DNA of 64,000 bases from Thraustochytrium sp. TN22 (lineage: Eukaryota; Sar; Bigyra; Thraustochytrida; Thraustochytriidae): contig JABLUY010000178.1 of the NCBI GenBank assembly GCA_013306675.1, positions 17,866 to 81,865 of the forward strand. The letters are read 5' to 3'. The number at the start of each line of letters is the position of its first letter. Within the stretch, counting starts at the first letter, position 1. The notes beneath the pieces are model-generated. The model saw only the letters and a program-made list of their open reading frames with translations. It was not told the DNA's origin and did not search any database. The position numbers and the translations under genes are program-made. Positions 39,741 through 59,767 of this stretch are shown here, in pieces.

Positions 39741-39783
39741 GAACCACGAGTGAGCAAGAGGGCCAGCGCAACGGGCAACAACC

Positions 39784-40007
39784 AAGCGAGACCAGCGACC
39801 GACGCGGCAACTCCCAAGCGAGACCAGCGGCCGACGCGGCAGGTACTAAGCGAGACCTGCGACCGACGCGGCGGGTACCAAGCGAGACCAGCGACCGACG
39901 CGGCAGGTACTAAGCGAGACCTGCGACCGACGCGGTGGCTACCAAGCGAGACCAGCGACCGACGCGGCGGGTACCAAGCGAGACCAGCGACCGACGCGGC
40001 AACAAGC
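39784..40007 (+). repeat. 32-bp minisatellite, seven units
   Basis: Seven tandem copies of a 32-bp unit beginning AAGCGAGACC with starts at 39784, 39816, 39848, 39880, 39912, 39944 and 39976. Units differ by a few substitutions, with A/T alternation after GAGACC. It begins 44 bp after the ATG3 stop codon. Because 32 is not a multiple of three, the frames through it cycle and are not coding. Confidence 0.95.
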
Positions 40008-43365: not shown

Positions 43366-45580
43366 CTTGTTGCTTGGTGGAGAAGAGGTTGCTGTTCGGG
43401 AGCTCGCTCTTGCTTGCAGGTCTGCTGCGATCGATCCTTGGCTGCAGCAGCTCGCGCCATCGCGGCACAAAGCCCCGAACGCTGCGGCGCCCAGTGGGCG
43501 AGTTTCGCCGAGGGGAGGCTCCACTGGCGCCATCTTTTTCCTGCGACCCCCCTCCCGCTCCACTGGCCCGGGGCCGCCCTCTGCTCGTGCCCGCAGCCGC
43601 CCCCCGTGGGGGGGATTTCGGCACGTGTGCTCCGCCCCGCCCACTGGGTGGGAAAGGACGCCTCCCGGGGCCGCGCGTCATGTTGTCCTAGTGCGTGCAC
43701 TACGTGACTCTTACCTTGCGGGAGTCTCCCGTAGCTCGTCAGGCCCGAGGAAACGCCGACAAAAAATGGAAAAAGAAAAGAACAAGAGTGCCGAAGCAGC
43801 GCAGGTTGGCTCAGTATGACTGGCTGCTGCCTCGTGCCAAGTCCAGGCGAGGCAAGGCAAGGCAGGCCAGCCACCGCGCGCCGGCACAAGCATGGCAAGT
43901 CGCGCTTGCGGCGCTGGCTGGCGTGTGCGAGCGGATGGTTGCTGGCAGCCCGACGCCGTCTCTGACTCACACTGCCAGCGCGGCACTGCACGGCGTGGCT
44001 GCGTGCGCGCGTGCACACCGACCGCGCGCCGCGAGCGCCGCGAGCAGCCGCGAGCAGCCGCCCTGGCCCAGTCGCGCCCAGTCGCCAGTGATGGGATGGC
44101 AGGCGGGCAGGCAGGCAGGCAGGCAGGCAGGAGGCCGCAGCCACCCAGCCAGTGGATAGCCAGCAGCCAGCCAGCCAGCCAGCGGCGGCGGCCGGGCGGC
44201 CCGGCGGCCGGCCGGGGAGCGAGCCGAGCGAGTCGCGGGGGCTGGAGGCGGGGCGAGGCGAGGCGGGGCTAGGCAGAGCCGCGCGCGCAGCGCGCGCGCA
44301 GCTGCGCGCGCGCGCGAGCCAGAGGGGCTGCAGTGCGAGCCGGAGCCTCGTGCCTGCTCGGAGCCCAAGTAAGCAAGTGACAAGAGCAAAAGTGCCAACC
44401 GATCCAGTCAAGCTGTGTTTTCCAGGCTGTGCCTTGTGCGGCTTGTGCACAACCAGCTTGTGCAGCCATGGCAGGTGGAGCTGTGCTCTTGTGCTTCAAG
44501 TTTGTGTGCACGCACGCGCGGCGCAGCGCAGCGCAGCACAGCACAGCACCGCATCGGCCACGCCCTCGGCATCGCACTGCACGCGTGCTTGCTCGCTCGT
44601 GATCGCTCGCGATGGATGGTGATGGCTCCGAGGCCGAGTCCGAGTCCCGGCCTGCCTGCCGTGACTGGCTGCGCAGGTGCGTGGCTCGTGATGCCTGCCT
44701 TTTGGCGCAGATCCAGCCCGGCCGGCGCGGCCACGGCTGTGAGCGAGTCCAGGCCGCAAGAATCACTGCACACACGCTGCCTGGACTGCCTGCCAGTGCC
44801 TGCTTGAGGCGCGGAGACGCTGGGACTGAGTCTTGCTTGTGCACGCGCGTGCCTGCCTGGCCGCGAGAGCGAGAGAGAGTGAGTGGAGGCGCGGCGGGCC
44901 GCTCAGCGCACAGCAAAGCAGAGCAAAGCAAAGCGTAAGAATCAACGCGAGGCCTGCAGTGGCAGCGCAAAGCACAGCAAAGCACAGCGCCAGTGACTCC
45001 GTGGAGTCCGTGCGACAGGCTGGCTGGCTGGCTGGCCGCAAGACTCAGCACTCCACCGCACTGCGCTGCACCGCGCTGCTCGCCATCGCCGCGCGCGCCC
45101 TCCGCTAGCGGCGCCCTGGCAGCGGGAACGCTACGGCGCCGCCCGGGCGGCTCCCACGTGGGCGGGAAAACTGCTCGCACCCGTTTCCCGGAGGAGACGC
45201 CCGCTCGGCGTCCCGGCCCGTGCTGCGGACCAAAGATTGCCGGCGGAGGCGCCCTGCTTGCTCCCCGTGCTGCGCGGCCGCCGTGCTCGCCGCGCTTCTT
45301 TCTACCAGGGCCAGTCAGGCCCGGCGCCTGTGCACTGCTCGCCCGCCCGCGCCAGCTGTCTGCTCGCGCGCGCGAGGTCTGCACACCTCTCCTCTCACCC
45401 ATCCTCCTCTGGCGCCTCAGCTCCAGCTCAGCAGGCGGCGGCATCCCCGTAATTGGCTTGGCGCGGCGTCGCGGCCATCGGTCCGGCGGTGGCGGACGTC
45501 CAGCGCGAGCACGAGCAGCTCGGCGTCGCGCAGCTCTGCAGCAGCAGCAGCAGCAGCAGCAGCACAGGAGCCAAGCGAAG
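43366..45580. promoter_or_regulatory. 2.2-kb intergenic region between divergent glutamine synthetase genes
   Basis: Must carry the promoters of both GS paralogues. It contains a (GGCA)n tract at about 44100-44132, a CCAGC tract at about 44155-44185, alternating GCGC sequence at about 44278-44316, repeated GCAGCGCAGCACAGC / GCAAAGC words at about 44520-44560 and 44920-44990, and a (GCA)n run at about 45536-45563 just 5' of copy 2. No domain-bearing frame is found; open frames are low complexity. Confidence 0.55.
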
Positions 45581-46717
45581 ATGACGGTCATCGCGGAGTA
45601 CGTGTGGATTGACGCCGAGGGCGGCCTGCGCTCCAAGTCGCGGGTCATCTACAAGAAGGACTCGGTCAAGCTCAAGGACCTGCCGAGGTGGAACTACGAC
45701 GGCTCGTCCACCGGCCAGGCCCCCGGCGATGACTCCGAGGTGATCCTCTACCCGTGCGCCGTCTACCTGGACCCCTTCCGCGGCGGCAACAACGTGCTCG
45801 TCATGTGCGACACGTACACGCCGCAGGGCGAGCCCATCCCCACCAACACCCGCTACGGCGCCAACCTCATCCTCGAGGCCGGCAAGAAGGAGATCCCGTG
45901 GTTCGGCATTGAGCAGGAGTACACCATGTTCAAGGACGGCGCTCCGCTCGGCTGGCCCTCGTCCAAGGCCCGCGCCTTTGGCGGGCCCACCCACACGCTC
46001 GGCTACCCGGGCCCGCAGGGCCCGTACTACTGCGCCGCCGGCGCCGACGTCTCTTTCGGCCGCGAGATCGTCGAGGAGCACCTCGCCAAGTGCATCTACG
46101 CCGGCCTCAAGGTCTCCGGCATCAACGCCGAGGTCATGCCTGGCCAGTGGGAGTTCCAGGTCGGCCCCTGCATCGGCATCGAGGCCGGCGACATGCTCTG
46201 GATGGCCCGCTACATCCTCAACCGCATCGCCGAGAACTACGGCGTCGTCGCCTCCCTCGCGCCCAAGCCCGTTCCCGGTGACTGGAACGGTGCCGGCTGC
46301 CACACCAACTTTTCCACCAAGAAGATGCGCGAGTCCAAGGGCGCTCTCGACAAGGTCATTATCCCCGCCATTGAGCGTCTCGCCAAGAAGCACGCCGAGC
46401 ATATTGAGGTCTATGGCGTCGGCAACGAGGAGCGCCTCACCGGCGCCCACGAGACCGCTTCCATCGACGAGTTCTCCTGGGGCATTGCCAACCGTGGCGC
46501 CTCTGTTCGCGTCGGCAACGAGACTGCCAAGGCTGGCCGCGGCTACTTTGAGGACCGCCGCCCTGCCAGCAACATGGACCCCTACCTCGTCACCGGCAAG
46601 CTCTTCCACACGGCTGTTCTCGATGCCCCCACGCGCTCCTCCTTTCTCGGTTTTACCGTCACCAAGGGCCCGCGCAAGTCTCTGTCCAAGCTTGGTTCGG
46701 CCCTTCTGCGCCGCTAG
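45581..46717 (+). CDS. Glutamine synthetase type II (copy 2)
   Basis: 378 residues from ATG 45581 ([15 protein letters not shown]). Same family and motifs as copy 1: [67 protein letters not shown]. It differs by a C-terminal extension of about 30 residues rich in Ser/Lys/Leu (after [11 protein letters not shown]), absent from copy 1. The two start regions are in mirror orientation, so the pair probably arose by inverted duplication and shares upstream DNA. Different isoforms could serve nitrate assimilation versus photorespiratory or general ammonium recycling, but nothing here assigns roles. No obvious organelle signal at this start. Confidence 0.96.
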
Positions 46718-48632: not shown

Positions 48633-51600
48633 ATGGACGAGAAGGTGCGCGTCATCGTGGAAGCGGCCATTCGCAAGATCGAAGGTGGCAAGACAGAGCT
48701 CCGGTACGTAGTGCTGATGCCGGTCTCAGCCGATGCAAGGCAGCCCAGCAGCCTGCGACATCCTCGAAACGTTCACGTTCGCGCATGGCGTGGCCAGTGA
48801 GGCAGGCACGGCAATCCTTCTTTGTGCGGCCTGCCAGCCACAGGGCTCTTGGACGACACGTGCAGGCCGGCCTGGCCTGGCCTAGCCTGGGCTGGCCTGG
48901 AGGATCATGTCAAGCTGACGACGCGCCTTGCCAAAACGCAGCCTTTACGACAACAACATCGGCTGTGCGGGCGCTGAAGCGCTGGCGCGAGCGCTGGAGA
49001 GCGGCCAGTGCACGCTGACGACGCTGGAGTGAGTTCCTCGCTTCCTTCTCCCATTCGGTGGCCACTTACGCATGGGCGCGGCCAGCTCGTCAGGCACGGC
49101 AGGCCTGCTTCGTAGCAGCCAGCCACCGGGCTCTTGGAGGACACGTGCAGGCAGGCCTGGCCTGGCCTGCCTGGGCTGGCCTGGAGGATCATGTCAAGCT
49201 GACGACGCGCCTTGCTAAAACGCAGGCTTTGCAGCCACAACATCGGCTGTGCGGGCGCTGAAGCGCTGGCGCGAGCGCTGGAGAGCGGCCAGTGCACGCT
49301 GACGAAGCTGGAGTGAGTTCCTCGTTTCCTTCTCCCATTCGGTGGCCACTTACGCATGGGCGCGGCCCGCTCGTCAGGCACGGCAGGCCTGCTTCGTAGC
49401 AGCCAGCCACCGGGCTCTTGGACGACACGTGCAGGCCGGCCTGGCCTGGCCTAGCCTGGGCTGGCCTGGAGGATCATGTCAAGCTGACGACGCGCCTTGC
49501 CAAAACGCAGGCTTTGCAGCCACAACATCGGCTGTGCGGGCGCTGAAGCGCTGGCGCGAGCGCTGGAGAGCGGCCAGTGCACGCTGACGAAGCTGGAGTG
49601 AGTTCCTCGTTTCCTTCTCCCATTCGGTGGCCACTTACGCATGGGCGCGGCCCGCTCGTCAGGCACGGCAGGCCTGCTTCGTAGCAGCCAGCCACCGGGC
49701 TCTTGGACGACACGTGCAGGCCGGCCTGGCCTGGCCTAGCCTGGGCTGGCCTGGAGGATCATGTCAAGCTGACGACGCGCCTTGCCAAAACGCAGGCTTT
49801 GCAGCCACAACATCGGCTGTGCGGGCGCTGAAGCGCTGGCGCGAGCGCTGGAGAGCGGCCAGTGCACGCTGACGAAGCTGGAGTGAGTTCCTCGTTTCCT
49901 TCTCCCATTCGGTGGCCACTTACGCATGGGCGCGGCCCGCTCGTCAGGCACGGCAGGCCTGCTTCGTAGCAGCCAGCCACCGGGCTCTTGGACGACACGT
50001 GCAGGCCGGCCTGGCCTGGCCTAGCCTGGGCTGGCCTGGAGGATCATGTCAAGCTGACGACGCGCCTTGCCAAAACGCAGGCTTTGCAGCCACAACATCG
50101 GCTGTGCGGGCGCTGAAGCGCTGGCGCGAGCGCTGGAGAGCGGCCAGTGCACGCTGACGAAGCTGGAGTGAGTTCCTCGTTTCCTTCTCCCATTCGGTGG
50201 CCACTTACGCATGGGCGCGGCCAGCTCGTCAGGCACGGCAGGCCTGCTTCGTAGCAGCCAGCCACCGGGCTCTTGGACGACACGTGCAGGCAGGCCTGGC
50301 CTGGCCTGGCCTGGGCTGGCCTGGAGGATCATGTCAAGCTGACGACGCGCCTTGCCAAAACGCAGGCTTTGCAGCCACAACATCGGCTGTGCGGGCGCTG
50401 AAGCGCTGGCGCGAGCGCTGGAGAGCGGCCAGTGCACGCTGACGAAGCTGGAGTGAGTTCCTCGTTTCCTTCTCCCATTCGGTGGCCACTTACGCATGGG
50501 CGCGGCCAGCTCGTCAGGCACGGCAGGCCTGCTTCGTAGCAGCCAGCCACCGGGCTCTTGGACGACACGTGCAGGCAGGCCTGGCCTGGCCTGGCCTGGG
50601 CTGGCCTGGAGGATCATGTCAAGCTGACGACGCGCCTTGCCAAAACGCAGCCTTTACAACAACAAGATCGGCTCCGCGGGCGCTGAAGCGCTGGCGCGAG
50701 CGCTGGAGAGCGGCCAGTGCACGCTGACGACGCTTTCGTGAGTTCCTCGTTTCCTTCTCCCGTCCGGCAGCCTCTGAAAGCACGGGCCAGCGGTCCATCT
50801 CATGTGATGATTACGCATGGGCGCGGCCAGCTCGTGCGGCACGGCAGGCCTGCTTCGTAACAGCCAGCCAACAGGCTCTTGGATGACACGTGTAGGCAGG
50901 CCTGGCCTGGCCTGGCCTGGCCTGGCCTGGCCTGGAGGATCATGTCAAGCTGACGACGCGCCTTGCCAAAACGCAGCCTTCAGCACAACTACATCGGCGA
51001 CGCGGGCGCTGAAGCGCTGGCGCGAGCGCTGGAGAGCGGCCAGTGCACGCTGACTTGGCTTTCGTGAGTTCCTCGTTTCCTTCTCCCGTCCGGCAGCCTC
51101 TGAAAGCACGGGCCAGCGGTCCATCTCATGTGATGATTACGCATGGGCGCGGCCAGCTCGTCAGGCACGGCAGGCCTGCTTCGTAGCAGCCAGCCACCGG
51201 GCTCTTGGACGACACGTGCAGGCAGGCCTGGCAGACCTGCCCTGGCCTGGCCTGGAGGCTCATGTCAAGCTGACGACGCACCTTGCAAAAACGCAGCCTT
51301 TCGGCCAACATGATCGGCGACGCGGGCGCTGAAGCGCTGGCGCGAGCGCTGGAGGCAAACCCAAGCAGCGGTCTTCAGGAGCTTATCCTGTCAGACGTCT
51401 CCGGCGCGATTGAGGCCCGTATTGGTAACCGCCTCAAGATCGTCAAAGCCGAGGTCGATGCGTTCAGCACGGACGCGCTGGCGGCGCTCCAAAACGACAA
51501 GAAGGTTCGCTGGGGGCGCGCCAAAGCCATGGTGGTCGGCCAGGGCGGCTCGGGCAAGTCGTCGACGATCCGCACGCTGCTGGACCAGGACGTGGTTCTC

Positions 51601-53889
51601 GAGCACGAGTCCACGCTCGGCGTCGAGCTCAAGCTCACGCACACGCGGGATTGGACGGAGCAAAGCCGGCTGGACACCTCGGTGCTCAGCGAGCAACTCG
51701 CGAAGCACAAGTATCGGCCTCGGAGCGCAGGTGTCGAGCACTCGCAGAGCACGACGTCAGCGCAAGCTCCTGCGTCCTTGCCCGCACCTCGGCCAGTTGC
51801 CGTCAACGAGATGGACGTTGCGAGAGCGTACAACGCTAAGATGCGCGTGCACGTGCAGGAGCAGGGCACCAAGGTGGACGAGGAGGTGAGCTTCACCATC
51901 TGGGACTACGGCGGCCAAGAGGTCTTCTACGCGCTACATCACCTCTTCCTGACGCGCTACGGCGTATATGCGCTGATCTTTGACATGCGCGAGGTGCTGG
52001 GCAGAGAAGCCTTCCAGGCCACCTTGGAGCCGGACGCGTACGCAAAGCTCGCGACGCGCGAGGACGCCCTCGCAACGCTGCGCTTCTGGCTCGACTCCAT
52101 TCGCCTGCACGCGCCGGACGTCAGCGTCGTGCTGATCGGCACATACCTGGATCAGGTTCCTCACGAGGCGCAGCACAAGCAGATCCAAAGGAACTTGGAG
52201 AAGTCGGCGTTGCGTGACTTAGCCGGCCAGCCTTCCATCGTCCGCAACACTCCTGAACGGCTTGAGTTCTTCCCTCTCAACAACACTTCACGTGGGGATG
52301 CCGACGGGCGCGTGGCTCGACTGCGCACCGTCCTGACCGCGGCGGTCGCAACGAAGGACTTCACAGCGCAAAAGGTGTCGTTGCGCTGGTCGCTCTGCCT
52401 TGACAAGCTGCTCGAAACAAAGAAGAGCTACATGACCCTCGACGAAGTCAGCACGGTGGCTCGCGAGAAGTGCGGTCTCCAGACCACGGACGTGCGCAAC
52501 ATGCTCGAGTACATGCACGAGCTGGGCGTACTGGTGCACCTGCGCAGCTCCGAGACGCTGCGCCAGGTGGTCGTGCTGCAGCCACAGTGGCTGCTGGGCA
52601 AACTATCTCGCGTCATCTGCGACCCGCGCCACATGGAAACGCACAAGGAACAGCTCAAGTACGACGATGACATGCCGGGTGTTCTGGGCGGCGCGCTCGA
52701 GGCCTGGGAGGATCGCGGCGTGGCGAGCCGAGCCCTGCTGACTTGGCTGTGGCGCGCCGACCAGGTCGACTACCTGTCGGCGCTGATGCAGGCGATGCTC
52801 TTAGCGAGCCCGAGCCCATGGGTCGGTGCGCGCGACGAGGAGGACGAGATCATTGACGACGAGGGCGCGCTGCTGGTCCCGAGCCTGCTCAGGCCTGCCG
52901 ACATGGACACTCTTAACAAGGGCCGCACGGCGGTCGACGGCGGCTCGCTGGCGTACATCAAGTTCCGCGTCTTGCCAAAGGGCCTCTTCCAGCGCCTCGT
53001 GAGCCAGTATGTCCAGGACTTTGGCTCGCAGGCGCACGTCCTGGAGGTGACGGCGGACACGGTGCACATGCTCTTTGACGGCGTCGACACCTTCCTCTCG
53101 ATAGAGTACGAGCACCGCCGTGTGGTGGTCCGCTTCGCGGGAGCTTCATCGCAGGGCCTAGTGGACCGCATCGCGTTGCTCAAGGCCGGCCTCGAGAGCA
53201 TCAACACCTCGTTCATGAAGAGCGCATTGCGGGCCAAGATCTTTGTCAGTTCCGACGGCTCCATGGAGCCTCGGTCATGCGCATCTGCAGACGAGCTTGC
53301 CGCACCGTCCAATGACGGCAAGGTGCGCACGCTAGGCGGCAAGTCGCTGTCTTTGGCGGCCTTTCATGCGGTCGTGGCCAACCAGCCGCAGGCGGAGCAG
53401 CTGCGCGACGCGGGCACGGACGCCGCCAAGCCTTTTGACGTCTTCCTTTCGCACGAGTGGGGCCCGGGCAACGCTACGCATCGCGTCGTGGTCAAGGTCG
53501 CCGCGGCGCTGGAGGCCGCGCATGGGATCCGCTGCTGGCTGGACCAGTCGGAGGTGAGGCCGGGCAACGTGGCGCGCGCCATGGCGCAGGGCATCGACCG
53601 TTCCAAGGCGAGTGTCATCTTCTTGACGCGCCAGTACATGGACAAGGTGAACACGCCCGAGGACCGGGACGACAACTGCCGCGCTGAGTTCAACTACATC
53701 CACAAGCGGCACAAGCTCGCGGGCATGCTCCCGTGCGTGCTGGACGAGGACATGGCCGACACGAGCGCGTGGAAGGGCGTCTTTGGCATTAGCCTGAGTG
53801 GCGACCAGCTCTTTTGCAAGATGACCGAGGGCGGCACCGATTCCGAGATCGAGAGGCTCGCTGGCCGCATTCGCGAGGTGATTGGTTGA
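48633..53889 (+). CDS. LRR-Roc-COR-TIR protein (NLR-like receptor), ten exons
   Basis: Exons: 48633-48703, 48942-49028, 49226-49312, 49511-49597, 49796-49882, 50081-50167, 50366-50452, 50651-50737, 50977-51063, 51297-53889. All introns are GT-AG, and the joined frame is 1119 residues. A short N-terminus (EAAIRKIEGGKTELR) leads to ribonuclease-inhibitor-type LRRs, one per 87-nt exon (pattern LxxNNIGxAGAEALARALESG). The last exon holds one more LRR, then a Ras-of-complex GTPase: P-loop VVGQGGSGKSS (about 335-345), switch DYGGQE (about 459), GTYLDQ. A COR region follows (LQPQWLLGKLSRVI), then a C-terminal TIR domain from about 969 (FDVFLSHEW, GIRCWLDQSEV, ASVIFLTRQY, NCRAEF, whose Glu fits the NADase position). 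Probable pathogen or stress sensor; that role is inferred. Further 5' exons are possible. Confidence 0.88.
48942..51300 (+). repeat. Tandem array of about 285-bp exon-intron units encoding LRRs
   Basis: Each unit is an 87-nt LRR exon plus an intron of about 198 bp. Unit exon starts at 49226, 49511, 49796, 50081 and 50366 are 285 bp apart and the five exons are identical; their introns differ at only a few sites (e.g. CCCGCTCG/CCAGCTCG, AGGCCGG/AGGCAGG). Flanking units at 48942, 50651, 50977 and 51297 are diverged. Introns share a TTTCCTTCTCCC pyrimidine tract early on, a (CCTGG)n run and the acceptor AAAACGCAG. All exons have the same phase, so copy-number change keeps the frame. Confidence 0.95.
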
Positions 53890-54650: not shown

Positions 54651-56233
54651 ATGCGCCGCAACGTGGACGCCGCCATCCGCGAGACCGGAAACGGCGAGAC
54701 AGAGCTCAGGTACGGGTGGTTGCTGGCAAGCTAGGGCGTGAGCAGGTCGGAGTCTCTGTGTGCATCAACAACCTCACGCTCACCAAGAACGCTGTGCCTT
54801 GGTCGAATGCAGGCTGTGGTCCAAAAAAATTGGTGACGCGGGTGCTGCAGCGTTAGCGCAAGCGATGGAGAGCGGCCAGTGCACGCCGACCACGCTCTAG
54901 TAAGTTACGTTCTGCCTTTCATCCCTACGGACCCATGCTGCATGGGCCCCGGGCTCTTGGACGGCTCGCGTTCGCTGACGAGTTGCTACCCCGCAGCCTG
55001 GGAAGCAACCACATTGGCTCGGCCGGCGCCAAAGCCCTGGCGCGAGCGCTAGAGAGCGGCAGGTGCACGCTCACCACACTCTCGTGAGTTTGAAATCGTG
55101 CGCTTGCCAGGCACGGCAGCAATTTCGCGCTGACTGGCGACCTACCTTTGTCTATCGCTTTCAGTCTTACCAACAACAAGATCGGCTACACGGGTGCACA
55201 AGCGCTGGCACGGGCATTGGAGAGCGGCCGGTGCATGCTGACGACGCTTTCGTACGTTTTCTGCTCCCCCGCCTCTTCTCTCATGGGCCCAGTGCAGCAG
55301 TGCAGACCTGGCTCATGTTGCAGCTGCCGGGCTCCTGGGCGGCATGCGCACTTAGTCCTGGGACATCAAGACACGCTTTCTGACTCACGGACGATTTGTC
55401 CTGCAGGCTCCGAATGAACAACATCGGTTCCTTTGGCGCTGAGGCTTTGGCGCGAGCGCTGGAGAGCGGCCAGTGCGCGCTGACCACGCTCGAGTACGTT
55501 CGATATTTTGCTCTCCTCCCAATTCCCCTCGACGCGCGCCATCCCACCGACGCCGTGCGCCTGCGCTCGACCTCTTATGACAGAACAGCAGGCTTTTAGG
55601 TCATGCACGTAGGCCGAGAGAAGCATGCCGCGCCCATACTCACGGTCAACTTGCCTTGCCGAATTGCAGACTCACTGGCAACGACATCGACATTGTGGGC
55701 GCTAAGGCGCTGGCGCGAGCGCTGGAAAGCACCACATGCAAGCTGACCAGGCTCGTGCTCTCGTGAGTGTCTCCGGAAAGAAGAAATCATAGCACACGGG
55801 CGACCCTAAAGTTGACTCATGGTTGCTATTTCTCAGTCCTCAAGATCGTAGTGACGAGCTCATGGCAACGATGACTCGAGAACTCCCACTCAACCAGACG
55901 CTCGCCTTGCAACGTGACGCCATCAAGAAACTCGCATGCCGGGCGCAGGAACTCCGCTGCTGCATCCAGCTCTCACGCCAGCGAGGCTTACCCATCACTA
56001 ACTTCGGCAGATCCACCGGCCCAGCTACTTCACATGCGGCAACCCTCCAGGCCAGCCCTTTGGCCGACAAAGAGAGTATCATTGCTGCCTACACGACCAG
56101 GATCGCGATACTCCGTGCGCGCTGCCAAGCTCTCCGCGCTCAAGTGCGGCCGCTCGCGTCATTCTTGCACGAGTTGGAGGACGACGACCAGGACGTTCAA
56201 GGAGCGCACGCACCGACGCGTCCGAGAACCTGA
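54651..56233 (+). CDS. LRR protein with coiled-coil-like tail, seven exons
   Basis: Exons: 54651-54709, 54813-54899, 54997-55083, 55165-55251, 55407-55493, 55670-55762, 55837-56233. All introns are GT-AG, and the joined frame is 298 residues ending in TGA at 56231-56233. The first exon encodes DAAIRETGNGETELR, closely like EAAIRKIEGGKTELR at the start of the upstream LRR-Roc-COR-TIR gene. Five LRRs follow, one per exon (four of 87 nt, one of 93 nt), e.g. LGSNHIGSAGAKALARAL and LTNNKIGYTGAQALARAL. Instead of GTPase and TIR domains, the last exon gives about 130 residues of charged, partly helical sequence. Could be a decoy, adaptor or truncated paralogue of the receptor. The first LRR is weak (KKIGDAGAAALAQAM). 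A more 5' start is possible. Confidence 0.75.
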
Positions 56234-57074
56234 GCAGTGGACGAAACTTGAAAAATGTTGGCGCTTCTTGTCAGCGAGATGACGACCGTCGAGTCTAGTT
56301 TGGCACCAAACTCGTCGACGAACGCTGAGCCTGACTGGGCCCATGTCCGCCGGCGGTCGCCAAGCCTAAGCGTCCCGGGCGATTCATTGCCAGGTAGGCT
56401 TCACGAGGGATCACCCCGTCCTTGGATAGGTTCATCGGGGCGCAGCCATTGTCGCTCGAGATCACTTCGGCATGGTCACGTTCTCAAAAATGATGGAGAG
56501 GTCCCTGCAGCCGCTGTAAAAAAGAGCACGTTCGAGTCTGCGCGTTGGACATATGTCGACGACAAGCATCGAAGCTGTGCCCAGTCATCGCTACGGTAGG
56601 ACGCGGATGCGTGGTCTGAGGGTGCGATAAAGTGAGCAAGCATGTCGTGCGCGCCAGAACGCCTGAATGGGGGTCTTTGAGCCAACCAATCTCGTATGTC
56701 GTCATGAACAGGCTGCCTGCTTGTCAGAAGCCTGAGCGCCTGCTGGTGCGTTTCTTGGCCTCGAGGCACATTTGCGGCCATGAAAAACATACAAAAACCA
56801 AATGAAAGCATTGTTGAATCTTGTAGTAGCGTAGGTGCGTCGCGCGCGACGTAGCGTAGCGTAGCGTTGATGCCTGCCTGACGTTGATACCTGCCTGACA
56901 TTCATGCCTGCCTGACGTTGATGCCTGCCTGACGTTGGTGCCTGCCTGGCGTTGATGCCTGCCTGACATTGATGCCTGCGCGACATTTATGCCTGCCTGA
57001 CAAACTTGGGCGAGCGCGACCCGATAAAGGGCGATGGGGACCCTGCCTGCCTGACATTGATGCCTGCGCGACAA
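56234..57074. other. Convergent flank with MATE-gene fragment and minisatellite
   Basis: 840 bp between the second LRR gene and the MATE gene. 56748-56774 matches 57312-57338 of the MATE coding region at 25 of 27 positions (minus-strand peptide QMCLEAKKRT versus QMCREAKERS), so part of the MATE 3' region seems duplicated here and decayed. A 17-bp minisatellite follows (separate entry). No intact gene. Confidence 0.55.
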
Positions 57075-57138
57075 TCATGCCTGCCTGACAAACTTGGGCG
57101 AGCGCGACCCGATAAAGGGCGATGGGGACCCGGCCTGC
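56866..57138 (+). repeat. 17-bp minisatellite and 87-bp higher-order duplication
   Basis: Eight tandem 17-bp units (consensus GTTGATGCCTGCCTGAC) at 56866-57001, with ATT/GTT variation. An 87-bp block then repeats: AAACTTGGGCGAGCGCGACC starts at 57002 and again at 57089, separated by two more 17-bp units. The second block overlaps the 3' end of the MATE gene and encodes its last residues. Confidence 0.95.
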
Positions 57139-58784
57139 ATGGAGGAGGCAAGCGCCTCTGCGGACTCGAGGTGATGGCGGCGCGTGATGCCTGTGCTGGC
57201 GGATGCGAGAGGAATGGCCTGGGTCTCCTCGAGAAAGTGCGGGTCCTCTTCCTCGAGGAGGTGCTCGAGCTGCACGTCAGCGTCGGTGACCTCTTCGACG
57301 ACGGCCTCGGAGCGTTCCTTGGCCTCGCGGCACATTTGGTCCCAGTCGAGGCGGGCAATGTAGGACCAGAGGACGACGAGCTTGAAGATCTCGCCGCAGA
57401 CCTGGCCCATCCAGATGCCGCGCACGGGGTGGTCCTTGTAGTAGGGCACCTTGTAGGCGAAGAGGAGGGCGCACGGGACCTGGACGCACCACATGCCGGC
57501 GGAGAGGGCAAAGGCGAGGATGCGGTTCTGGGCCATGGCCTCGAGCAGGTTGACGGCGCAGAGCGCCATGCAGGCGGTAAAGTAGTCGATGACGAGGGCG
57601 TACATGGCGCCGTCGACGACGTCAATGACGTCCTGTTCGTTGGTGAAGAGCCTCGCGATGGACACGCGGTAGATCCAGGTGAAGAGGCCGACGAGGAAGC
57701 AGATGATGATGACGAGGATGATGCTGATGCGGGCCACGAGCTTGGCGCCCGCCACGTTGCCCTCGCCCAGGTACGAGCCGACGCGGACCTGGAGCGCGAG
57801 GCCGCAGCCCCAGTAGAGGGACCACAGCACACCCCAGAGGCTGGCAAGGATGGCGTTGCCGGCAATGAGCGACTCGCGCGTCTCGTCCGTGCCGATGCGC
57901 CCGGTGGAGAAGGAGATGAGCTGCAGTCCGGAGTTTTCCAAGACGATGCCCACGGCCATGGGCAGCACCATCTTGAAAAAGCGCTTCACGCGGTCGGCCT
58001 GGAGAAACTCCCAGGACCACCCGCCCCAGTAGGCCTTGTGGTAGCCGCGGATGCCGACGGTGTACGTCGTGAAGCACGTGAGCTGGAAGACCATGGACAA
58101 AAAGGTCGCGAACGGGCTGCCGCGCAGGCCCCACCCGACGGGGCCGTCCGCAGGCACGAAGACGTAGTTCATGGCGTAGTTGACGCCGACCGTCAGCGCG
58201 GACACCACCATGGCGGGCGTGACCACCTGCATCGACTGGAAGTACTGGCGGATAATCATGTACATGACCATGGGCCAGAGCACCAGGGCCGACACGTCGT
58301 TAAAGTCCTGCGCCAGCTCGGCCACGCCCTCGGCGTCGACCATGATCGCGACCACCTGCTTGGTGAAGAGGTAGCCGACCAGGATCGGCAGGCACAGGAG
58401 CGTCGTCACGAAGATGGCCAGCTGCAGCCACACGCCAGCCAGCTTGTAGTTCTTGGCGCCGATGGCCTGGCTGCCCAGCGAGTTGAGGGCGTACCCGGGT
58501 GCGAACGCGATGTTGCTCAGAAACTGGTTCCACGTGTTGCCGAAGCTCGACGCCGTCAGCTCCTTCTTGCCCAGGTGGCCCACGAAGGCCGTGTCCGTGT
58601 TGATGATGACCAGCCTGCACAGCGTGGACAGCGCCACCGGCAGCGACAGCACGCTCAGCTCGCGCAGCTCCGTCCAGAACTCCACGCGCTTGTCGCCGCC
58701 ATCCTCGCTTTCCTCTCGCAGCAGCGGCGTGCGGTGGTCGCCCGCCTCCGCGTCTCCGTTGCCCGCCGCGCCCACCGACGCCAT
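57075..58784 (-). CDS. MATE-family multidrug/organic-cation efflux transporter
   Basis: 569 residues from ATG 58784. Antiporter exchanging protons or sodium for organic cations or secondary metabolites across the plasma or vacuolar membrane. About twelve hydrophobic segments are visible in the two-lobe MATE layout. N-lobe: LRELSVLSLPVALSTLCRLV, INTDTAFVGHLGKKELTASSFGNTW, FAPGYALNSLGSQAIGAKNY. C-lobe: FFKMVLPMAVGIVLENSG, AGNAILASLWGVLWS, LQVRVGSYLGEGN. The GSQAIGA and VRVGSYLGEGN motifs are family hallmarks. The cytosolic C-tail is charged. Its last 20 or so residues (QAGSPSPFIGSRSPKF...) are encoded by minisatellite DNA, so the stop codon has probably been captured from the repeat. Confidence 0.93.
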   Translation of the reverse strand: MASVGAAGNGDAEAGDHRTPLLREESEDGGDKRVEFWTELRELSVLSLPVALSTLCRLVIINTDTAFVGHLGKKELTASSFGNTWNQFLSNIAFAPGYALNSLGSQAIGAKNYKLAGVWLQLAIFVTTLLCLPILVGYLFTKQVVAIMVDAEGVAELAQDFNDVSALVLWPMVMYMIIRQYFQSMQVVTPAMVVSALTVGVNYAMNYVFVPADGPVGWGLRGSPFATFLSMVFQLTCFTTYTVGIRGYHKAYWGGWSWEFLQADRVKRFFKMVLPMAVGIVLENSGLQLISFSTGRIGTDETRESLIAGNAILASLWGVLWSLYWGCGLALQVRVGSYLGEGNVAGAKLVARISIILVIIICFLVGLFTWIYRVSIARLFTNEQDVIDVVDGAMYALVIDYFTACMALCAVNLLEAMAQNRILAFALSAGMWCVQVPCALLFAYKVPYYKDHPVRGIWMGQVCGEIFKLVVLWSYIARLDWDQMCREAKERSEAVVEEVTDADVQLEHLLEEEDPHFLEETQAIPLASASTGITRRHHLESAEALASSMQAGSPSPFIGSRSPKFVRQA

Positions 58785-59767
58785 TTCGCCTGCCGTGCCG
58801 CGCGCTCCGCCGCCGCCGATCCCTCTCTGCCGCCGCCGCGCCCGCCGCGCGCCGCGCCACCAGCGGTCTCGCGCGAGTCAACGCGCCTCGCCGCCTGCCG
58901 CCCCAGCCAGCCTGCCCAGCCTGAGAGAGGGGGGCTCTGAGGCCGAGAGCTCAGCTTCTGCGCCTTCCGAGTCCTTCTGCCACTGGCGGCGTGGCGGCTG
59001 CCAGCCACTGCGCCGCGACTGCGGCCACGGTGACGGCGCCGCGCCCGGAGCCCGAGCTGCTGGCCAAAGCGCGCCAAAGCAAGGAAGAAAGCTCGTCGCG
59101 GCGAGCTTTCTGCGCCTGCGTGGTTGGCAAGTTCGCGCAGCCAGTGCCAGGCTGCCTGCCTGCCACGCACAGCACGCGGTGCTGCACGCACTGCGCGGCA
59201 CTGCACACGCCGCGTCGCTCGCGGTCGGTGCCTGCGCGGCCAGCAGCCACTGCCGCTGCCAGGGCTTGCTTTGCTTGGCGGCAATGCGGCGCCCGCTTGG
59301 ACTTTGACGCCTCCGAATCCGAGTCGTCGGTGGCGCTGCGCGCGTGGGAAGTCCAACAGCCAGGCAGGCAGGCAGGCAGGCAGGCAGGCCGGCCTTGACT
59401 CTGACTGATCTGGCTGGCTGATGATTGACGTGAGCTGACTGCCAGTGACAGTGAGAGCTGAGGTTGGTGGTGGCTGGTTTGCTCGCAGAGGGGGGGCGCG
59501 CGTTGGCGCGCGTTGGTGGCGCGTTGCCGGCCGCGCTTGAACGCGCTTGGTGCAGTGGTGGTGGGCGCCGACTTGATGATGGGCTCGGTAGAGTACACAC
59601 ACGGAGTCCTCGCGCACGCCCAGGCACCAGCACGATGATGACACCCCAGCGCACAGCGCTCTCTAACTTTAACGGCCTCCTGGACCGCAGCTCCCGGGTC
59701 GGGCAGTGCCAGTGTGACAACTCGTCGCGTCCGGGTCGCGGCCGCGGCCGTGCTGCAAGGCGCCGTC
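58785..59767. other. Divergent region between MATE and the p25-alpha-like gene
   Basis: 980 bp with no recognised gene. A (GGCA)n tract lies at about 59360-59389. A plus-strand frame near 59635-59765 (with MMTPQRTALSNFNGLLDRS) might be a 5' exon of the next gene in another frame, but no splice pair is convincing. Promoters for both genes are expected. Confidence 0.45.
59360..59389 (+). repeat. (GGCA)n tetranucleotide tract
   Basis: Tandem GGCA/CAGG repeat in the upstream region of the p25-alpha-like gene. Similar tracts at about 44100-44132 and immediately before the BRX1 start at about 36362-36382. Confidence 0.95.

What the first reader, a model, noticed from the sequence alone, without database searches (positions are those of the whole stretch)
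48942..51300. LRR array amplified as exact exon-intron units inside a receptor-like gene
Five consecutive 285-bp units carry identical 87-nt LRR exons and almost identical 198-bp introns, flanked by diverged older units. Every exon has the same phase and length, so unequal crossing-over adds or removes whole LRRs without frame damage. The variation seen among the five units is intronic while the exons are unchanged, consistent with very recent amplification or with homogenisation. This is a plausible engine for fast copy-number change in a recognition domain.
Basis: partly seen in the sequence, partly recalled or inferred. Interest (0 to 1): 0.87.

Follow-up and report, generated by a model that had tools for sequence, protein, structure and literature searches.

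The report
Self-duplicating LRR exons in protist sensors
A single-celled protist, probably a thraustochytrid, carries a large set of probable immune-type sensor genes whose recognition part grows by copying whole exon-intron blocks, while natural selection rewrites only the few amino acids that would touch a target; brown algae are known to do much the same.

Summary
Window 48942-51063 holds eight LRR exons, each exactly 87 nt and phase 2; exons 2-6 are identical, in 285-bp units. The spliced gene (48633-53889, 1119 aa) is intact and encodes LRR-Roc-COR-TIR, so probably a cytosolic ROCO sensor, not a membrane receptor. The genome (37.9 Mb, probably a thraustochytrid) has 46 COR-A matches, 34 with TIR in the same frame, and many such arrays with differing unit lengths. 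Related units also lie beside kinase-TIR and upstream of WD40 frames. 'Variation is intronic, exons unchanged' is compatible with chance here (3 intron sites; P about 0.27) and reversed elsewhere. Between 10 arrays, introns diverge 12.1%, silent sites 13.7%, amino-acid sites at five concave-face codons 45.7%, other amino-acid sites 10.2%. Best reading: whole units are copied in tandem and selection diversifies the binding face. At least 10 contigs end inside such arrays, so copy numbers are probably minima. Brown-algal ROCO genes and Tetrahymena LRR genes are close precedents. New variant of a known kind.

The parts
48633..48703 (+). start exon, 71 nt, MDEKVRVIVEAAIRKIEGGKTELR, ends in phase 2
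   Evidence: Spliced frame open to the stop; a similar start exon is seen in four other genes whose contigs end in the following intron
48704..48941 (+). first intron, 238 bp, 3' half of the C-type haplotype
48942..49028 (+). LRR exon 1, LYDNNIGCAGAEALARALESGQCTLTTL + split codon, 87 nt
49226..49312 (+). LRR exon 2 (identical copy 1 of 5)
   Evidence: 0 differences among exons 2-6
49511..49597 (+). LRR exon 3 (identical copy 2 of 5)
49796..49882 (+). LRR exon 4 (identical copy 3 of 5)
50081..50167 (+). LRR exon 5 (identical copy 4 of 5)
50366..50452 (+). LRR exon 6 (identical copy 5 of 5)
50651..50737 (+). LRR exon 7, diverged mainly at binding-face codons
50977..51063 (+). LRR exon 8, diverged mainly at binding-face codons
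51297..53889 (+). last exon: ninth LRR, Roc GTPase with GQGGSGKSST P-loop, COR-A, C-terminal TIR, stop
   Evidence: Pfam Roc 53.8 bits, COR-A 49.5, TIR_2 50.3; translation; PDB matches
49313..50650 (+). region holding the five 198-bp introns after exons 2-6 (types C, C, C, A, A)

Best explanation
This is the recognition part of an LRR-Roc-COR-TIR gene, one of a large family of probable cytosolic danger sensors in a thraustochytrid-like protist. Each LRR is one 87-nt phase-2 exon. A whole exon+intron unit can therefore be gained or lost by unequal crossing-over or slippage between near-identical units without damage to the frame. Recent amplification makes runs of identical LRRs; recombination keeps units alike. 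Selection then diversifies codons 2, 3, 5, 8, 27 and 29, taken here as the concave beta-strand face of an RI-type LRR and the turn after it, while conserving the helical core; introns drift. Shown: units, phase, intact frame, domains, arrays elsewhere in the genome, and the contrast between face, other, silent and intron divergence. Inferred: unequal crossing-over as the copying step, ligand binding, immune function, signalling through GTPase and TIR.
For: Intact spliced frame of 1119 aa; retention of any intron but the first gives a stop after one codon. Roc, COR-A, TIR_2 above cut-off. LRR part matches ribonuclease inhibitor and NLRP LRRs in the PDB. 169 exon matches in 21 sources, 164 delimited, 138 at exactly 87 nt (the script favoured 87). 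Recent arrays: C11 315 bp with 8 of 11 87-nt exons identical, C398 276 bp with 6 of 12 identical, C407 260 bp, C149 317, C379 321; C321 also 315. Family A, 10 arrays, 45 array pairs, 783 unit pairs (105 skipped for unlike intron length): intron 0.121; nonsynonymous at the five xxLxLxx codons chosen beforehand 0.457 (3.4-4.3 times intron, 95% bootstrap); nonsynonymous at the other 24 codons 0.102 (0.77-0.95 times); silent at those 0.137 (1.01-1.26 times). With the two further variable codons 5 and 8 set aside, the remaining 22 give nonsynonymous 0.058 and silent 0.126 (that split was made after seeing the data). Intron core types run C, A-like, C, C, C, A, A along the array, a mosaic expected from block duplication or exchange.
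Against: No reads, transcripts or second strain were available, so neither copy number nor splicing is verified. Family B (4 arrays, 6 pairs) behaves differently: introns 0.095 against silent sites 0.286 and other nonsynonymous sites 0.203, so its introns are homogenised or constrained. Within arrays silent exon differences also exceed intron differences (pS 0.041 against 0.0127), which positive selection alone does not give, and whole-exon pN equals pS. Of the five positions chosen beforehand, codon 26 hardly varies. No binding-face segment is shared between arrays (0 of 96 distinct segments), so exchange of such segments between genes is not seen. The selection test is a count, not a codon model. 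Immune function is by analogy only.
Confidence: 0.77

Rival explanations
1. Assembly artefact: a smaller true array was expanded, or several loci were merged, so that the five identical units do not exist as such.
For: At least 10 contig ends lie inside such arrays or their first intron, so the assembler struggles there. The C359 and C11 arrays are nearly identical (5 of 2805 sites) while their flanks differ by 2.3-3.6%, which mis-polishing could also give.
Against: The window array has further gene sequence on both sides and carries internal markers (two intron haplotypes; a 1-bp deletion and two further changes in the intron after exon 1). Other arrays have different unit lengths and sequences. 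Breaks of contigs in arrays point to too few copies assembled rather than too many.
Confidence: 0.12
2. Targeted diversification: a dedicated process rewrites the face codons (by short-tract conversion from donors or by codon-level mutagenesis), rather than selection on ordinary mutations.
For: Some closest-intron unit pairs of different genes have no mismatch at aligned intron sites, yet nonsynonymous divergence of 0.62 (C379/C321, 6 gap positions) and 0.48 (C407/C239, 20 gap positions) at the six face codons (pairs chosen for minimal intron divergence). Multi-nucleotide codon changes cluster slightly more than expected (25 codons with two or more changes against 20.0, P 0.012).
Against: Five window copies, eight C11 copies and six C398 copies keep identical exons, so face codons are not hypermutable at this time scale. 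No segment is shared between the arrays compared. Selection plus homogenisation of the rest gives the same pattern.
Confidence: 0.08
3. Introner-like spread: near-identical introns were inserted into LRR exons by a mobile intron.
For: Introns of different genes can be nearly identical, and one 49-bp intron piece lies outside any evident LRR gene (C109).
Against: The copies examined sit at the same phase-2 joint between LRR exons. Of six partial intron-only matches examined (C275, C244, C16, C153, C205, C109), five are the first intron of LRR genes or of a decayed one; only C109 is not.
Confidence: 0.02

Closest known systems
Brown-algal LRR-ROCO genes (Zambounis et al. 2012, not held, recalled and as cited in PMC11378527; Teng et al. 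2024, PMC11378527)
   Same: LRR + Roc-COR; one LRR per exon, constant exon length, phase 2; four positively selected sites on the concave face; stramenopile host; candidate immune receptors (section 11 and passages read)
   Different: There 72-bp exons, and LRR-ROC-COR the only architecture the paper's authors infer for brown algae apart from small groups with an extra C-terminal domain. Here 87-nt RI-type exons, exact recent unit runs, a C-terminal TIR, and related units beside kinase-TIR and WD40 frames. That paper reports no more than four ROCO copies in each of several other SAR species, among them Schizochytrium aggregatum; it also names a TPR-ROCO-TIR in the red alga Chondrus, so a ROCO-TIR fusion as such is not new
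Tetrahymena 90-bp LRR exon arrays (PMC6564038, passages read)
   Same: Tandem constant-length LRR exons, phase 2, clonal expansions with their own intron lengths, proposed unequal crossing-over
   Different: 90 bp rather than 87; thousands of LRR genes per the paper; a link to REP retrotransposons, not tested here; the passages I saw do not mention Roc-COR-TIR
Animal NLRP and ribonuclease-inhibitor genes (exon structure recalled)
   Same: RI-type LRRs of about 28-29 residues; sequence matches in the PDB
   Different: Here the NTPase is Roc-COR, not NACHT, and the unit arrays are recent
TAL effectors (recalled)
   Same: Near-identical repeats differing at a few specificity residues
   Different: Bacterial DNA-binding proteins without introns; analogy only

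Membership tests
ROCO (Roc-COR) GTPases | Roc domain followed by COR in one protein | tested here: met
   Roc 53.8 bits (cut-off 27), COR-A 49.5 bits (cut-off 35.3), in order, same exon
ROCO (Roc-COR) GTPases | P-loop of the GTPase | tested here: met
   GQGGSGKSST in the translation; motif meaning recalled; the Pfam Roc stretch itself covers profile positions 44-91 only
ROCO (Roc-COR) GTPases | GTP binding and hydrolysis | not testable with these tools
   needs protein
Brown-algal exon-shuffling LRR-ROCO | one LRR per exon, phase 2 | tested here: met
Brown-algal exon-shuffling LRR-ROCO | 72-bp exon | tested here: not met
   87 nt
Brown-algal exon-shuffling LRR-ROCO | diversifying selection on the concave face | tested here: met
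   counting method, not a codon model; face positions from the recalled LRR motif
Brown-algal exon-shuffling LRR-ROCO | alternative splicing of LRR exons | not testable with these tools
   no transcripts
Brown-algal exon-shuffling LRR-ROCO | LRR-ROC-COR domain set without TIR | tested here: not met
   C-terminal TIR_2; 34 of 46 COR-A matches share a frame with TIR_2
Tetrahymena 90-bp LRR arrays | exactly 90-bp exons | tested here: not met
   87 nt
Tetrahymena 90-bp LRR arrays | phase-2 introns and clonal unit expansion | tested here: met
NLR (NACHT or NB-ARC LRR) receptors | NACHT or NB-ARC domain | tested here: not met
   no such Pfam match in the last exon
TIR-domain NADase signalling proteins | catalytic glutamate and NAD cleavage | not tested
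   TIR_2 match only; a Glu in DDNCRAEF is suggestive from recalled motifs

The most novel reading that the evidence does not exclude
The genome holds a portable, self-amplifying family of LRR cassettes recruited by ROCO-TIR, kinase-TIR and WD40 genes, in which a dedicated process, not selection alone, renews six face codons while recombination keeps introns and core nearly identical: a germline diversification system in a unicellular stramenopile.
Probability: 0.08. Interest if true: 0.9.

Novelty: new variant of a known kind. Interest (0 to 1): 0.5.

Why it matters
It puts the brown-algal style of candidate immune-receptor evolution into a probably thraustochytrid lineage with a compact 38-Mb genome. 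There copy number and face-codon change could be followed directly in clonal cultures with long reads. In family A the introns diverge about like silent sites, so they are an internal yardstick beside each LRR that helps to separate copying, homogenisation and selection within one gene family. Related units beside Roc-COR-TIR, kinase-TIR and WD40 frames suggest a recognition module recruited to different signalling outputs.

Tried and rejected
Membrane receptor: rejected as the leading reading because the start exon is short and charged and the C-terminus is Roc-COR-TIR; signal peptide and transmembrane predictors were not run. (closest-intron pairs) chooses pairs by intron similarity and so understates intron divergence; with all unit pairs replace it for the main claim. 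Searches used 14 of the 19 arrays that had units; L033, L034, L037, L038 and the window's second gene, which are more diverged, were left out, as was L027 (near-duplicate of L028); families A and B were drawn by me. One search left codons 5 and 8 out of both classes; one search puts them back with the other codons, which raises the other-codon value from 0.058 to 0.102. Exchange of binding-face segments between genes: 0 of 96 distinct 24-nt segments shared between arrays, permutation mean 0.02; that count used 124 exons, leaving out L027, exons not 87 nt long and exons with irregular ends. Introner spread: not supported. Organism: the 18S search did not complete; identity rests on a PfaA-like 3044-aa frame beside a divergent 2083-aa frame (recalled as a thraustochytrid hallmark) and on no chlorophyll-binding match. 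Structure prediction and fold search were not used. The contig-end test assumed total array spans of 60-300 kb; at 300 kb it is not significant.

Full report
Observation. The array is there as described. TRF finds 48833-50761 with period 285, 6.8 copies and 98% match. Eight exons of exactly 87 nt begin at 48942, 49226, 49511, 49796, 50081, 50366, 50651 and 50977, all with ..CGCAG acceptors and GTGAGT donors. Exons 2-6 have no differences. Introns after exons 2-4 are identical, those after 5-6 are identical, and the two types differ at 3 of 198 sites. Along the gene the intron core types run C (first intron), A-like with a deletion (after exon 1), C, C, C, A, A, then diverged. That mosaic is expected if blocks of units were duplicated or exchanged.

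Gene. Splicing 48633-48703, the eight exons and 51297-53889 gives 3360 nt, 1119 aa and a single stop at the end. Each of the nine introns falls in phase 2, so any number of 87-nt exons keeps the frame. Retention of any intron but the first meets a stop after one codon; the first meets one after 32. The last exon carries Roc (53.8 bits), COR-A (49.5) and TIR_2 (50.3), all above Pfam cut-offs. Its closest solved relatives are chains named leucine-rich-repeat protein and Rab family protein (bacterial Roc-COR proteins as I recall), LRRK2, and a TIR protein. The LRR part resembles ribonuclease inhibitor and NLRP LRRs. The gene is therefore LRR-Roc-COR-TIR and most likely cytosolic; a signal-peptide predictor was not run.

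Genome. The window lies in a 37.9-Mb assembly of 453 contigs, and is GC-rich (60-73% per 2-kb step). A PfaA-like frame of 3044 aa with a divergent neighbouring frame of 2083 aa and no chlorophyll-binding match point to a thraustochytrid; that these are hallmarks is recalled. The genome has 108 Roc matches (probably with ordinary small GTPases among them), 46 COR-A matches of which 42 pass the cut-off, and 123 TIR_2 matches. Of the 46 COR-A matches, 34 share contig and frame length with a TIR_2 match. The 285-bp unit has 159 matches, and the tool calls such counts lower bounds.

Arrays. I fetched 20 loci. With the window, a profile finds 169 exon matches; 164 could be delimited by splice sites and 138 of these are exactly 87 nt (the script preferred 87). 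Recent arrays differ in unit length: 285 (C86, the window), 315 (C11, 8 of 11 87-nt exons identical, and C321), 276 (C398, 6 of 12 identical), 260 (C407), 317 (C149) and 321 bp (C379). This suggests that amplification happened several times independently. Ten frames from the array loci were scanned. Four have Roc, COR-A and TIR_2 (C321, C381, C17, C265). One has Roc and a COR-A just below cut-off (C11; its TIR lies outside the fetched piece). Two have a protein kinase and a TIR (C398, whose TIR is below cut-off, and C407). One has WD40 repeats (C149, about 1.6 kb downstream of its array). Two have no match (C359, C379). The kinase arrays belong to family B; the WD40 array belongs to family A like the window. 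That LRRs and kinase or WD40 belong to one gene is inferred from position and strand.

Selection. The test uses all unit pairs between the ten arrays of family A (45 array pairs, 783 unit pairs, 105 more skipped for unlike intron length). Introns diverge 0.121. At the five positions taken beforehand from the LRR xxLxLxx motif (codons 26, 27, 29, 2, 3; motif recalled) nonsynonymous divergence is 0.457, 3.4-4.3 times the intron (95% bootstrap). At the other 24 codons it is 0.102 (0.77-0.95 times) and silent divergence is 0.137 (1.01-1.26 times). 'Beforehand' means taken from the motif and not fitted; I had by then seen the per-codon counts. Six codons stand out: 2, 3, 5, 8, 27 and 29; codon 26, although in the prior set, hardly varies. 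With codons 5 and 8 set aside after the fact, the remaining 22 codons have nonsynonymous 0.058 and silent 0.126, so introns and silent sites of the core diverge alike (ratio 0.92-1.16). Family B (4 arrays, 6 pairs, 156 unit pairs) also has high face divergence (0.552), but its introns (0.095) are far below its silent sites (0.286), so introns there are homogenised or constrained. Five more diverged arrays were left out of these counts. Within arrays, exon differences exceed intron differences: 40 tree edges give intron 105/8300, pN 0.042, pS 0.041; 95 pairs with both flanking introns alike give exon 180/8265 against introns 466/39349 (pairs not independent). The excess of silent exon differences within arrays is not explained by selection on the protein; deeper ancestry of exons kept by selection while introns homogenise would give it.

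Homogenisation and assembly. Two near-duplicate 12-exon arrays (C359 and C11:302-310k) differ at 5 of 2805 array sites but at 26 of 1121 upstream and 154 of 4258 downstream sites. The array thus seems to have been exchanged or homogenised as a block, unless polishing did it. Of 12 contig ends examined, six lie inside an array (C210, C381, C1, C419, C17, C239), four in the first intron before one (C16, C153, C275, C244), C379 begins just past its array, and C53 is unclear. With 906 contig ends, 1.4 are expected for 60 kb of arrays, 3.6 for 150 kb and 7.2 for 300 kb (P for ten or more: 3e-6, 0.004, 0.19; the spans are my assumption). Copy numbers are best read as minima.

Comparison. Brown-algal ROCO genes have one 72-bp phase-2 exon per LRR and four positively selected sites on the concave face (PMC11378527, section 11 and passages). 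Tetrahymena has 90-bp phase-2 LRR exon arrays with recent clonal expansion, for which unequal crossing-over, possibly with retrotransposition, is proposed (PMC6564038, passages). The present family works like both and is a member of ROCO, but it is not the brown-algal type by exon length and domain set. A ROCO-TIR fusion as such is in print (TPR-ROCO-TIR in Chondrus, named in PMC11378527). Searches for LRR, Roc-COR, TIR and protist terms (15 of 32 listed) and for thraustochytrids with LRR, TIR or immune-receptor terms (12 of 5,338 listed, none of the 12 holding the word thraustochytrid) showed no paper on this family; this is weak evidence that it is not in print. Zambounis et al. 2012 is not held and is cited from recall and from PMC11378527.

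Verdict. The variation pattern was misread: in the arrays compared, face codons of exons change fastest and, in family A, introns drift at about the silent rate. The finding is a new variant of a known kind, and useful because copying and selection can be told apart within the gene.

Noticed in passing
window 54651-55766 (+): A second, short LRR gene just downstream: a start exon and five more diverged LRR exons, followed by a frame that was not scanned for domains.
   Followed up: partly
window 57075-58877 (-): MatE transporter frame (146 bits) on the opposite strand.
   Followed up: no
window 44939-46717 (+): Glutamine synthetase frame of 592 aa, upstream neighbour of the LRR gene.
   Followed up: no
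window 56865-57138: 17-bp minisatellite and an 88-bp duplication (TRF).
   Followed up: no
window 39774-40001: 32-bp tandem repeat, 7.1 copies, 88% match.
   Followed up: no
G000:C160:1247-4627: Four TIR_2 matches spaced exactly 1043 bp, each with one TGA inside: a tandem array of TIR-bearing units, perhaps decayed.
   Followed up: no
G000:C205:300-1000 (L044): Decayed start of an LRR gene beside a tRNA-like sequence (tRNA recognised by eye).
   Followed up: no
G000:C109:45283-45331 (L043): 49-bp piece of the LRR intron outside any evident LRR gene.
   Followed up: no
L031, L032, L035, L036: In family B introns are about three times more alike than silent exon sites; intron constraint or homogenisation, unexplained.
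   Followed up: partly
G000:C124:26703-41142: PfaA-like PUFA synthase frame of 3044 aa with a divergent frame of 2083 aa, used to guess the organism.
   Followed up: partly
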